Positions 57,230-60,970 of a stretch of DNA of 64,000 nt are shown here, in pieces. Under the pieces are notes generated by a model that worked only from the letters and a program-made list of their open reading frames with translations, made no database searches and was not told where the DNA came from. Numbering within the stretch: the first letter of the stretch is position 1; each line of letters begins with the position of its first letter. Position numbers and translations under genes: made by a program. Location of the stretch: the NCBI GenBank assembly GCA_019637805.1, contig JAHBVB010000001.1:571875-635874 (forward strand). Reading direction: 5' to 3'. This DNA comes from Anaerolineales bacterium (GTDB lineage: Bacteria; Chloroflexota; Anaerolineae; Anaerolineales; UBA11579).

Positions 57230-57661
57230 TTAGTTGGCGGCGTCCCTCAGCGCCTTGCCGGTCTCGGTGGGCTTGGCCCGGCCCCACAGGCTGGCCGCCA
57301 GCAGGCCAGCGGCAGCGACTTGCAGGCCGCGGGCCGGCAGCTGCCAGGCCGGTTCAAGAGCCAGGCTGGCGGCTGCCAATAAGGCCAAGCTAAGGTTGAG
57401 CGCGGCCAGGGCCGCCCAAGCCAGCTGGGGGCGGCCGCGCTTGGGCTCGCTGCGGAAGCGCGGAAAGATCCAGTAAGCCACGGCAAAGACCAACTGCACG
57501 ATCCAGCCGATGAGCAGGAAATCGATATGCAGCGGCAGCAAGGCCCACAGGGCCGGGTGCAGCGGGAAGGCCTTGTTGACCAGCAGGATGGCCCCGAAAG
57601 TGATGCCGACCAGGAAGTAGAGGAGGGCCAGGCGAATGCCCCAAACGCTGAAGCGCGGCAT
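57230..57661 (-). CDS. Four-helix membrane protein, heme-copper-oxidase-subunit-I-like, paralogue of the next gene
   Basis: A 143-residue membrane protein with four helices. The segment PLHIDFLLIGWIVQLVFAVA followed by YWIFPRF matches its neighbour (SPVYFHLFLVGWVTQMIMGV then GLWFFPKY). Both contain a conserved His two positions into a helix and a W-x-x-Q, patterns seen in proteins annotated as cytochrome-oxidase-subunit-I or NnrS-like. The function is not known. Its ATG overlaps the previous stop (TGATG). It is the last gene of the nirK unit. Confidence 0.68.
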   Translation of the reverse strand: MPRFSVWGIRLALLYFLVGITFGAILLVNKAFPLHPALWALLPLHIDFLLIGWIVQLVFAVAYWIFPRFRSEPKRGRPQLAWAALAALNLSLALLAAASLALEPAWQLPARGLQVAAAGLLAASLWGRAKPTETGKALRDAAN

Positions 57662-58074
57662 CAGCGTTCCTTGATGCGCGGCCAGACGTTGAGCACGAAC
57701 AACAGCGCCGCCAGCCACTGGGCCACGGCTGAGAGCACCAGGGCCCACAGCCAGATGGCTGCCGGCTGAGCGCTGGCGGCGGGCTCGGCCACGGCGCGCA
57801 GCAGCAAGCCGAGATTGAGCAGCCAAAAGCTGGCCCACGCCGCGGTCTGGCTGCCGCGTGGGCGCGCTTGGCTGTACTTGGGGAAGAACCACAAGCCGAC
57901 GCCCATGATCATCTGGGTCACCCAGCCCACCAGGAACAAGTGAAAGTAGACCGGCGACAAGCCGCTGATGCTCAGACCGAGCAAGGGCTGCAGCGCCTGA
58001 AAGACGGCCAGGCCCATGGCCAGCACCAGGTAGAGCAGCGAGGCCTTGATGAACCCGCGCGTAATGGGCGGCAT
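57661..58074 (-). CDS. Four-helix membrane protein, heme-copper-oxidase-subunit-I-like
   Basis: A 137-residue membrane protein, tandem paralogue of the downstream gene. Conserved His is in PVYFHLFLVGW and a W-x-x-Q-x-I-M-G pattern follows in helix 2. AGGA lies 5 bases before the ATG at 58074, 7 bases after the cupin stop. It may bind heme or quinone, or serve as an NO-related sensor or electron carrier for the nitrite reductase; the sequence cannot decide. Confidence 0.7.
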   Translation of the reverse strand: MPPITRGFIKASLLYLVLAMGLAVFQALQPLLGLSISGLSPVYFHLFLVGWVTQMIMGVGLWFFPKYSQARPRGSQTAAWASFWLLNLGLLLRAVAEPAASAQPAAIWLWALVLSAVAQWLAALLFVLNVWPRIKER

Positions 58075-58081
58075 GCCGGTC

Positions 58082-58456
58082 CTATTCCACCTGGATCGGC
58101 GCCGCGCCAGCCGGGCGGCCGTGCGGCAGCGCCACGCCCGCCGGGGTTTGACGCAGGATGGCCAGGAAGACCAGTTCCTCATCCAGGGCTTGCGCGCCGT
58201 GCAGCTCACCCACTTCGAAGACCAGCATGGTGCCGGGGCCGCACTCGACCGGGGTGTCATCTTCGCCGCGGAACAAGCCTCTCCCCCGCAGCACGATCAT
58301 CAACAAGGCGATCTGTGGGCCGCGGTGCGGCTTGATCTTTTGGCCGGGCTTGAGCGCAAAGCGCATCACCCGGCCGCTCTCATCCACCAGCATGGGTTGG
58401 ATATTGGCAGCCTCGTCTTTAAAGACAATATCTTCCAAAAGAGAAACAGGTTTCAC
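58082..58456 (-). CDS. Cupin-domain protein
   Basis: A 124-residue single cupin. The first motif is KPHRGPQIALLMIVLRGRG (His plus a weak Glu position) and the second is PGTMLVFEVGELHGAQAL. A GTG start at 58456 has AGGAGG 5 bases before it. Related cupins near denitrification genes are small sensors or metal-binding proteins; here it lies between a CopD-like gene and two oxidase-like membrane genes. Its ligand is unknown. Confidence 0.82.
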   Translation of the reverse strand: MKPVSLLEDIVFKDEAANIQPMLVDESGRVMRFALKPGQKIKPHRGPQIALLMIVLRGRGLFRGEDDTPVECGPGTMLVFEVGELHGAQALDEELVFLAILRQTPAGVALPHGRPAGAAPIQVE

Positions 58457-58500
58457 AACAGCCTCCTTAAAGGCGAATGGCAGACTGAGCAGCCTGCGAG

Positions 58501-58971
58501 TTAGTAGCCGCGCGCGGCGACCATCATCAAGATGAAGGCCAGGCTGACCACCAGCAGACCGACCTTGGGCACGATCTGCATCAGGCGCAGGGTTTTGGCC
58601 TGCTGGTCCCCGGCCGCAAAGCGGGCTTCAAACTGGCCTAGCACGCCAAAGTGCACCAGCGCGATCAGCAGGCCCAGCGCGCCGCCCGCCAGCACCAAGA
58701 GCCCATGCCGGCTGGTCAGATAGACATGCATGTTGCGCCAGCCGGTCATCAGATAGTTCAGCCACAGGCCGGAGAGCATAGTGACGACGATGAGGTGCGA
58801 GGCCAGGCGCGAGATGCGCGGGAAGAAATGGGTCATAAACTGGCCGCGCCCCTCGGCCGGCATTTTGGTCACCTGGGGGATGAGCACAAAAGCCATCAGG
58901 CAAATTTCTCCCAACCAGGCGGCGGCACTCAGAATGTGCAGCCAGCGAGCGATATTGATCCAACTGGGCAT
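58501..58971 (-). CDS. CopD-like four-helix membrane protein
   Basis: A 156-residue protein with four hydrophobic helices. HILSAAAWLGEICLMAFVL near the start and SRLASHLIVVTMLSGLWLNY follow the CopD/DUF2269 pattern, with His residues that could bind heme or copper. Location directly behind nirK suits a copper- or heme-linked membrane role. No ribosome site is visible at the ATG. The nirK stop lies 63 bases upstream. Confidence 0.72.
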   Translation of the reverse strand: MPSWINIARWLHILSAAAWLGEICLMAFVLIPQVTKMPAEGRGQFMTHFFPRISRLASHLIVVTMLSGLWLNYLMTGWRNMHVYLTSRHGLLVLAGGALGLLIALVHFGVLGQFEARFAAGDQQAKTLRLMQIVPKVGLLVVSLAFILMMVAARGY

Positions 58972-59034
58972 GGCAGAGCACGGCGAAGGCGGGCGCAGGG
59001 AGGGCGGCCCTAAAGCCGCCCTCCCAAAAACCGC

Positions 59035-60486
59035 TTACGGGTTGGCCGGTCCTTCGTGGAAGATGTTGGGGTTCTGTTGACCTTCGACATGCAGGATGCC
59101 CATCAGGCCGCGCTCGGCCCGGCTGAGGGCGTGGTCAACCAGCACGTAGTGGCCGGGCACGTCCAGGCCGAACTCGACCATCACCGCGCCGCCGGGTGGG
59201 ACGGAGATGGTCTGCACATCGGTCAGCGGCGGGCTGCTGAGCGAACCGAAGGCATAGGCCCGGTCAAAGATCTCACCGATGACGTGGAAAGAGCTGGTGA
59301 AGTTGGGACCGCCGACACCGACGAAGATGCGCACGCTTTCGCCCACGTTGGCGGTCAGCCAATGCTCTTCGGTGGTCAGGGCCGCCGCGGCGCCGTTGAA
59401 GACGAAGTACTCAGGCTGTTCATGGGACATCTTCTCATGGCTGAAGTTGAGCAGGCCCGGTGTGCCATAGGGTTCGGCGGTGTAGATCTCGCCCTGCATG
59501 ACATAGAACTCACGGTCCACCGGGGGCAGGCCGCCGGCCGGCTCGATTAGGATCAGCCCATACATGCCGCTGGCGATGTGGTGCGGCACGCTGGGCGTGG
59601 CGCAGTGGTAGACGTAGATGCCCGGCTGCAGAGCCTGGAAGGTGAAGGTCTTGGTTTCCCCCGCCCCGACTTGGGTGACCTCACCACCGCCGCCCGGGCC
59701 GGTGGCGGCGTGCAAATCCACGGAGTGGGTGAAGGCGCTGTTGGTCTCATTGCGCAGGGTGATCTCGACCATGTCGCCCACCCGGGCGCGGATGAACGGG
59801 CCGGGCACGGTGCCGTTGAAGGTGAAGTAGGTGTAGGCGCTGCCGCTCGCCAGCTGGCCGACCACTTCCTGGGCCACCAGTTCCGCCTGGACCAGCTGCG
59901 GGCCGCGGGCGCCAACAGGGGCGGGCAGGTCTGTGGGGTGCTTGATGATGCTGACCGCATCCACCGCCGCGCTGCCGGCGCCGACCTGGATCGTGCCGAA
60001 CATGCCGGCAGCGCGGTGGCCAATGACGCTGCAGTAATATTCGAAGCTGCCTTCCTGGTCGGCGACGAAGGTCAGGGTGACGCGCTCGTCCATCTGTTTA
60101 ATCGAGGCGCTGTGGACGCCAAATTCGTCAATGACGATATCGTGTTCGGCGGCCTGGCCATTGATCAGCGTGATCTGCACCACGTCGCCGGGCTGGACAA
60201 CCAGGGTCGGGTTGATCTGGCCGTCAATCTCGCCGCCCACGCCGCGGAATACCAAGTTGTGTCCTTCGGCATCCGTGCGCAAGGTGAATTCGATCGTGGC
60301 TTCGCCCACGTCGCCGCTGGGGACGTGGCCGGGTTCATGGCTGACGCCGCCGTCCAATTCGTCCAACCGAGCAGCCATCGAATCGAGGGTAGGCTGGACC
60401 TGGGCCAGGTCCGTCGATTCGATGCAGGCCAGCGCCGAAAGCGCCAAGACTGCCAAAACCGCCAACAGGGAATACGTTCGCTTCAT
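59035..60486 (-). CDS. nirK: Three-cupredoxin copper nitrite reductase (NirK) with N-terminal blue-copper domain
   Basis: A 483-residue exported enzyme that reduces nitrite to nitric oxide. A signal peptide ends at Cys21 (imperfect lipobox LSALAC). The N-terminal cupredoxin (about 70-170) has type-1 copper ligands His115, Cys152, His157 and Met162. The NirK part has type-1 ligands His254, Cys295, His303 and Met308 and type-2 ligands His259, His294 and His401, with catalytic Asp257 and His375. All are present. N-terminal cupredoxin fusion is known, as in Hyphomicrobium, and may replace an external electron donor. The ATG at 60486 has GAGG 8 bases upstream. Confidence 0.95.
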   Translation of the reverse strand: MKRTYSLLAVLAVLALSALACIESTDLAQVQPTLDSMAARLDELDGGVSHEPGHVPSGDVGEATIEFTLRTDAEGHNLVFRGVGGEIDGQINPTLVVQPGDVVQITLINGQAAEHDIVIDEFGVHSASIKQMDERVTLTFVADQEGSFEYYCSVIGHRAAGMFGTIQVGAGSAAVDAVSIIKHPTDLPAPVGARGPQLVQAELVAQEVVGQLASGSAYTYFTFNGTVPGPFIRARVGDMVEITLRNETNSAFTHSVDLHAATGPGGGGEVTQVGAGETKTFTFQALQPGIYVYHCATPSVPHHIASGMYGLILIEPAGGLPPVDREFYVMQGEIYTAEPYGTPGLLNFSHEKMSHEQPEYFVFNGAAAALTTEEHWLTANVGESVRIFVGVGGPNFTSSFHVIGEIFDRAYAFGSLSSPPLTDVQTISVPPGGAVMVEFGLDVPGHYVLVDHALSRAERGLMGILHVEGQQNPNIFHEGPANP

Positions 60487-60509
60487 AATCAGCACCTCTT
60501 AAGGGTCAT

Positions 60510-60527
60510 CTTCTGACGAATCAGAAG
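60510..60527. promoter_or_regulatory. Inverted repeat upstream of nirK
   Basis: CTTCTGA (60510-60516) and TCAGAAG (60521-60527) with spacer CGAA form a perfect 7-bp palindrome, 23 bases before the nirK ATG. No FNR/NnrR-type TTGAT-N4-ATCAA is present. A repressor or activator site is possible. Confidence 0.5.
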
Positions 60528-60673
60528 GCGAATGGTTTCGATGACTCTAGTGGATGCACCGGTAAACGCTTATTGATAGCTGTCTCTTAAAAATAGGGGC
60601 AATTGTCCCGAGACCTTGCAGGCCAAAAGTGCTACTCAGGCCGGTTGATTTGCCACGGAAGCCAATACTTGCA

Positions 60674-60679
60674 TATACT
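60674..60679 (+). promoter_or_regulatory. Leaderless-type -10 box of the ArsR gene
   Basis: TATACT ends exactly 6 bases before the ATG at 60686. Confidence 0.55.
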
Positions 60680-60685
60680 TTAGGG

Positions 60686-60970
60686 ATGGATGCGTTGTTC
60701 AAAGCCCTGGCGGACCCGACCCGCAGGGCCGTGCTGGATGAGTTGACGGAAAATGACGGCCAAACCCTCTTCGAACTCTGCCAGCGCCTGGTGGTGCGCC
60801 ACCAGATCAATTCTTCCCGGCAGGCGATTTCGCAGCATTTGGATCTGTTGGAGGATGCCGGGCTGGTGAAGGTCAAACGGCAGGGTCGCTACAAGTTTCA
60901 CTTCATCAACACCACCCCGCTGGAAGACATCCAACGGCGTTGGCTGGACAAAGGCAAGGAAACCCAATGA
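60686..60970 (+). CDS. ArsR-family transcriptional regulator
   Basis: A 94-residue winged-helix regulator. It starts MDALFKALADPTRRAVLDEL, the classical ArsR opening, and the recognition helix is SRQAISQHLDLLEDAGLVKV. Metal-binding Cys pairs of the ArsR type are lacking (only one Cys, in FELCQRL), so it is of the non-metal type that often pairs with SRPBCC or VOC genes. The start is fixed by TATACT 6 bases upstream. The VOC gene overlaps its stop (ATGA). Confidence 0.93.
   Translation: MDALFKALADPTRRAVLDELTENDGQTLFELCQRLVVRHQINSSRQAISQHLDLLEDAGLVKVKRQGRYKFHFINTTPLEDIQRRWLDKGKETQ

What the first reader, a model, noticed from the sequence alone, without database searches (positions are those of the whole stretch)
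57230..60527. nirK unit with tandem paralogous membrane proteins and no NO reductase nearby
Copper nitrite reductase carries its own N-terminal cupredoxin. It is followed by a CopD-like protein, a cupin and two short four-helix proteins that are paralogues of each other (PLHIDFLLIGWIVQLVFAVA against SPVYFHLFLVGWVTQMIMGV). Both keep a His and W-x-x-Q as in heme-copper oxidase subunit I or NnrS relatives. Together they could be an electron-supply or NO-response module for the enzyme.
Basis: partly seen in the sequence, partly recalled or inferred. Interest (0 to 1): 0.6.

Follow-up and report, generated by a model that had tools for sequence, protein, structure and literature searches.

The report
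Paired mini-oxidase-like membrane proteins near nirK
Next to a copper nitrite reductase gene, this Chloroflexota bacterium carries two small, always-paired membrane proteins, each about one third of a respiratory-oxidase core, that probably clamp one haem between them and help the cell cope with nitric oxide.

Summary
A three-domain copper nitrite reductase (NirK with N-terminal cupredoxin) is followed by a CopD-like protein, a cupin and two tandem four-helix paralogues (B1, B2), with no haem-copper-type NO reductase in the genome. B1 and B2 are single four-helix units of the haem-copper oxidase (HCO)/NnrS fold. The B1 profile aligns with all three four-helix units of a NnrS protein, and a predicted B1+B2 model overlays two of the three units of CcoN (Z 21, 261 of 277 residues). 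Each has one invariant histidine. Set on the same helix, B1 H45 falls on the TM10 low-spin-haem ligand of HCOs and B2 H45 on the TM2 ligand, so the pair plausibly holds one bis-His haem b and cannot build the haem-copper site. B1 and B2 are obligate partners (73 of 74 loci, the 74th truncated). NirK is adjacent in only 10 of 74, but 25 of 28 pair-bearing genomes have NirK or NirS (62 of 273 without), and NnrS-like, DUF2249, Crp/Fnr and cupin genes recur nearby. Best reading: a mini-NnrS for NO handling, not dedicated to this NirK. The kind, single-unit HCO homologues, was named by Pei et al. 2014 (not readable here).

The parts
59035..60486 (-). nirK: lipoprotein signal (lipobox ALAC), N-terminal cupredoxin domain, two-domain copper nitrite reductase; likely start ATG at 60486 (ORF opens with GTG at 60495)
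   Evidence: TIGR02376 337.6 bits over cut-off; full-length match to PDB 6tfd/2dv6; the T1, T2 and catalytic His/Asp motifs and the cupredoxin Cys-His-Met are readable in the translation
60511..60526 (.). perfect palindrome TTCTGACGAATCAGAA upstream of nirK, possible operator
   Evidence: one match in the window, 0.8 expected at 2 mismatches; exact copies found only at the nirK leaders of the two relatives with adjacent nirK
58998..59025 (-). GC-rich 12-bp hairpin right after nirK, terminator- or 3'-end-like
   Evidence: -35.1 kcal/mol, z -3.8; a comparable hairpin with a different stem in L064 and a near-copy in L059; no T-run follows
58501..58971 (-). CopD-like four-helix membrane protein, 156 aa
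   Evidence: weak CopD/DUF2269 matches below cut-offs; another CopD-family gene precedes the pair in 7 other loci
58082..58456 (-). single-domain cupin, 124 aa
   Evidence: PF07883 over cut-off; stays with B1-B2 in the genus when nirK does not
57661..58074 (-). B1: single four-helix HCO/NnrS unit, 137 aa; invariant H45, G50, W51, Q54, W62, P65, N87, E97, W131, R133
   Evidence: PF00115 over cut-off; conservation; NnrS/HCO unit alignments
57230..57661 (-). B2: paralogous four-helix unit, 143 aa; invariant H45, K30, G52, P67, R128; start overlaps the B1 stop (TGATG)
57940..57942 (-). codon of B1 His45 (register of the TM10 low-spin haem ligand of HCOs)
57527..57529 (-). codon of B2 His45 (register of the TM2 low-spin haem ligand of HCOs)

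Best explanation
B1 and B2 are two separately encoded four-helix units of the HCO/NnrS fold that assemble, as a heterodimer or as part of a heterotrimer, into a reduced NnrS-like membrane protein. One haem b sits in the pore between them near the periplasmic face, ligated by B1 His45 (equivalent to the second TM10 His of HCOs) and B2 His45 (equivalent to the TM2 His). No CuB or FeB site can be built, so the pair does not reduce O2 or NO by the HCO mechanism. It most likely acts in NO handling, protecting against or sensing the NO made by NirK/NirS, as NnrS does in other bacteria. Shown here: obligate pairing, paralogy, HCO/NnrS unit homology, high-confidence HCO-like docking in a predicted model, His registers, nir co-occurrence. 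Inferred: haem binding, stoichiometry, NO role.
For: B2 follows B1 in 73 of 74 named loci although only B1 was used to find them, usually 1-3 bases apart. The B1 profile matches all three units of a NnrS protein that itself passes PF05940 (E 1e-15, 2e-10, 2e-8). B1 best aligns with HCO arc III with H45 on the second TM10 His; B2 H45 aligns with the first TM10 His and, in a weaker alternative, with the TM2 His; the only PDB sequence hit is CcoN TM9-12 (E 0.09). AlphaFold2 of 19 in-frame B1+B2 pairs: pLDDT 93.4, pTM 0.89; VIA-align Z 21.0, 261 aligned, 3.2 A to CcoN 157-466, Z about 20 to aa3 residues 12-336. Charge bias puts the His end of TM2 at the periplasm. NirK or NirS in 25/28 pair genomes vs 62/273 others, p 3e-12, uncorrected for phylogeny. 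A 12-TM NnrS/HCO-fold gene lies within 5 kb in 25 of 74 loci, DUF2249 in 14, Crp/Fnr in 11.
Against: No haem binding, expression or phenotype is known. The third arc of the fold is missing. The pores of the three-arc fold are pseudo-symmetric, so a five-coordinate haem is nearly as compatible as a bis-His one. 35 of 74 loci have no recognised NO-type neighbour within 5 kb (many are short contigs). The window's own genome has no DUF2249 and no PF05940 NnrS. Three pair genomes lack both NirK and NirS.
Confidence: 0.5

Rival explanations
1. Electron supply: B1:B2 is a small membrane cytochrome b passing electrons from the quinol pool to the periplasmic cupredoxin/NirK or a cytochrome c.
For: Predicted haem position near the periplasmic face; NirK carries its own cupredoxin; ferredoxin-type or multihaem cytochrome genes adjoin the pair in 5 loci each.
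Against: Only one candidate haem and no recognisable quinol site; the pair is far from nirK in most loci and in four same-genus genomes; some nirK genomes of the same genus lack the pair (G008, G011).
Confidence: 0.2
2. A minimal NO reductase replacing NorB in nir-plus, nor-minus genomes.
For: 11 of 28 pair genomes have only one HCO, a Tyr-type O2 reductase, and all 11 have NirK; no flavodiiron protein in the window genome.
Against: Only two invariant His in the pair and no His-His in TM3, so no second metal site; about ten pair genomes also carry eNOR-type enzymes (Gln for Tyr in those read in full), so the pair does not track absence of NOR.
Confidence: 0.07
3. Assembly or copper/haem-maturation factor (in company of cupin and CopD-like genes) rather than an NO protein.
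For: Cupin genes (16 and 10 loci for two groups) and CopD-family genes (7 and 2) recur within 5 kb; nos accessory genes (nosD, nosF, nosY, nosL) in several loci.
Against: No conserved Cys or Met cluster; a single buried His per subunit in a haem-ligand register.
Confidence: 0.13

Closest known systems
Single-unit haem-copper-oxidase homology proteins (Pei, Li, Kinch, Grishin 2014, Protein Sci 23:1220; full text not held, content recalled from memory)
   Same: Four TM helices, separately encoded, homologous to each of the three units of HCO/NOR, most like TM9-12; proposed homo- or heterotrimers; linked to denitrification and NO detoxification.
   Different: Whether this exact tandem pair is in that paper could not be checked. 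Added here: obligate B1-B2 pairing, complementary His registers, two-unit docking model, nir co-occurrence.
NnrS (PF05940)
   Same: Same four-helix unit, three times; His in the TM2-type helix of units 1 and 3; NO context. NnrS protects the iron pool from dinitrosyl iron complexes without removing NO (PMC9246220).
   Different: One 12-TM chain; B1 and B2 are single units in two chains and do not pass PF05940.
cbb3 oxidase subunit CcoN and NorB (PF00115)
   Same: Fold of two of three arcs (Z about 21) and the low-spin haem His registers.
   Different: No binuclear site, 8 not 12 helices in the pair, two chains.
Three-domain NirK with N-terminal cupredoxin (PDB 2dv6, 6tfd)
   Same: Full-length domain order and metal motifs.
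   Different: No material difference seen.

Membership tests
Single-unit HCO homology proteins (Pei et al. 2014) | Independent gene with four TM helices homologous to one HCO unit | tested here: met
Single-unit HCO homology proteins (Pei et al. 2014) | Strongest similarity to TM9-12 | tested here: met
   B1: HCO arc III best, CcoN 310-403, NnrS unit 3 best. Pfam COX1 alone places it on TM1-4.
Single-unit HCO homology proteins (Pei et al. 2014) | Assembly into homo- or heterotrimers | not testable with these tools
   Only single-chain prediction available; the two-unit pseudo-fusion docks as two HCO arcs
HCO/NOR catalytic subunit | 12 TM helices and six conserved His including the haem-metal site | tested here: not met
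   One invariant His per protein, 4 helices each
NnrS (PF05940) | Score over the family cut-off | tested here: not met
   No match in the window genome; the B1 of G014 reaches 23.7 bits against 28, on model positions 255-365
NnrS (PF05940) | Haem/copper content and NO protection | not testable with these tools
   Needs biochemistry
Copper nitrite reductase with N-terminal cupredoxin | TIGR02376 over cut-off plus N-terminal cupredoxin | tested here: met

The most novel reading that the evidence does not exclude
B1 and B2 are a split, heteromeric low-spin haem b site of the HCO superfamily: each subunit keeps one of the two axial His in the register of its HCO helix (TM10 and TM2), giving a living two-gene model of how three-unit oxidases were assembled from four-helix units, used as an NO-handling module in nitrite-reducing Chloroflexota.
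Probability: 0.4. Interest if true: 0.65.

Novelty: new member of a known kind. Interest (0 to 1): 0.45.

Why it matters
If right, a widespread unannotated gene pair gets a concrete, testable role in NO handling, including in NirK-bearing bacteria that have no recognisable haem-copper NO reductase and could therefore leak or must tolerate NO. It also offers a small system for testing whether haem-copper oxidases arose by joining four-helix units, because the two haem ligands sit on two separate genes.

Tried and rejected
Single NirK-dedicated operon: rejected by locus counts and by same-genus separation. NO reductase substitute: no second metal site; co-occurs with eNOR. A mixed alignment of single and fused B1/B2 rows stacked the paralogues on each other and was replaced by 19 paired in-frame read-through rows. 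Viral contigs hold no relatives. NCBIfam gives no name to B1, B2 or the 12-TM neighbour. The sigma-70 scan shows nothing for the minus strand of the cluster. PMC8756737 describes NirS and eNOR in Chloroflexi; the passages read do not mention this pair. Pei et al. 2014 was found through PMC11218638 but is not held.

Full report
Observation. The window lies in a 2.34-Mb, 95% complete Chloroflexota assembly whose named close relatives are Anaerolineales MAGs. On the minus strand stand nirK (60486-59035), a CopD-like gene (58971-58501), a cupin (58456-58082), B1 (58074-57661) and B2 (57661-57230), then a zinc alcohol dehydrogenase. The B1 stop and B2 start overlap by one base. NirK is an ordinary three-domain enzyme with an N-terminal cupredoxin. 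A strong GC hairpin separates it from copD, so one transcript is not assured.

No NOR. PF00115 finds a single full-length HCO in the genome; it has HPAVY in TM6 and HH in TM7, the marks of an O2 reductase. No PF05940 NnrS, flavodiiron domain, cd1 NirS, or NosZ of the TIGR04246 type over its cut-off was found. Hmp, Hcp and other NO-removing enzymes were not searched. The assembly is incomplete, so absence is provisional.

The pair. B1 and B2 are paralogues and match the first four helices of COX1 in Pfam. A profile from nine B1 relatives pulled 74 loci out of 84,980 species genomes: mostly Anaerolineae, Ardenticatenia and Caldilineae, a few labelled Nitrospirae, Omnitrophota, Poribacteria, Bacteroidetes and others (MAG labels). 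In 73 of 74, B2 follows B1, commonly by 1-3 bases; the 74th contig ends inside B1. B2 was not used in the search, so this is a real linkage.

Relation to NnrS and HCO. Larger frames hit weakly by the B1 profile proved to include NnrS proteins over the PF05940 cut-off. hhalign places B1 on each of their three successive four-helix units: E 1e-15 (unit 3), 2e-10 (unit 1), 2e-8 (unit 2); B2 likewise but weaker. Against 31 Chloroflexota HCOs, B1 aligns with TM9-12, with B1 Y43 on the first TM10 His and H45 on the second; B2 H45 aligns with the first TM10 His and, as a weaker alternative, with the TM2 His (E 3e-4, 0.013, 0.2, single comparisons). The B1-B2 alignment is ungapped there, so B1 H45 and B2 H45 are two residues apart in register. 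In HCOs the TM2 His and the second TM10 His are the two axial ligands of the low-spin haem (established knowledge).

Structure. In 19 loci B1 and B2 are in frame with one stop between them; reading that stop as a residue gives natural-sequence pseudo-fusions. AlphaFold2 on that alignment, led by L067 of the same GTDB family as the window, gives eight helices, pLDDT 93.4 and pTM 0.89; both His45 fall in the second helix of their unit. Foldseek ranks cbb3 CcoN chains first. VIA-align gives Z 21.0, 261 of 277 residues, 3.2 A, to CcoN 157-466, and Z about 20 to aa3 12-336: two adjacent arcs of the three-arc fold. Loop charges put N- and C-termini inside and the His end of TM2 outside. Coordinates could not be inspected, so haem geometry is inferred.

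Context. Within 5 kb of the pair: a 12-TM protein of HCO fold in 25 of 74 loci (model pLDDT 90, Z 29 to CcoN over 355 residues), cupins, DUF2249 (14), Crp/Fnr (11), NirK (10), nos accessory genes, protoglobin (5). DUF2249 genes are induced in haloarchaeal denitrification and sit by nirK and nor (PMC11218638); nnrS belongs to NO-responsive regulons (PMC1274295). In one 301-genome Chloroflexota sample the pair occurs in 28; NirK or NirS in 25 of these against 62 of 273. Phylogeny is not corrected for. In the window's genus the cupin-B1-B2-ADH locus is constant beside thrS, with nirK beside it in three genomes and elsewhere in four.

Function. With one His per subunit, no conserved Cys/Met cluster and no His pair in TM3, a haem-copper or haem-iron site is not possible in the known way. 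One haem between the two units is the economical reading. NnrS, its nearest characterised relative by fold and context, protects iron from NO without removing NO (PMC9246220). That role is favoured, at moderate confidence, over electron supply or NO reduction; about ten pair genomes also carry eNOR-type enzymes, eleven have only an O2 reductase.

Known kind. Pei et al. 2014, cited in PMC11218638 and PMC4602095, defined such single-unit HCO homologues; PMC4602095 says a four-helix homotrimer resembles the HCO core. From memory, that paper proposed homo- or heterotrimers and a denitrification link. It could not be read, so whether this pair is in it is open; hence 'new member of a known kind'.

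Noticed in passing
L067:5352-6461 and relatives in 24 other loci: Unannotated 12-TM protein (no Pfam or NCBIfam hit in the members scanned) beside the pair; predicted model has HCO fold (Z 29 to CcoN) and its last unit matches the B1 profile (hhalign E 1e-5): an unnamed NnrS-like family.
   Followed up: yes
L122:4977-6664: Two complete B1-B2 pairs in tandem.
   Followed up: no
L124:1432-3154: A protoglobin gene is inserted between B1 and B2.
   Followed up: no
L170:5111-5947 (minus): 279-aa protein next to the pair with the unit motif HLAIYGWISGMILTVNYHMLP: possibly a natural two-unit protein.
   Followed up: no
L171:2059-2529 and L172:2394-2789: Solitary single-unit relatives; L171 matches COX1 positions 303-402 (arc III), L172 positions 3-143.
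   Followed up: partly
window 58998-59025: 12-bp GC hairpin just after nirK without a T-run; near-copy in L059, different stem of similar strength in L064.
   Followed up: partly
window 60629-60970: ArsR/SmtB-family regulator transcribed divergently from nirK.
   Followed up: no
L237-L244, L247 and L248: HCOs of about 580-660 aa with TM6 HPAQQ or HGAQQ in the two read in full (Gln for Tyr): eNOR-type enzymes in pair-bearing genomes; the others share their TM7/TM10 motifs.
   Followed up: yes
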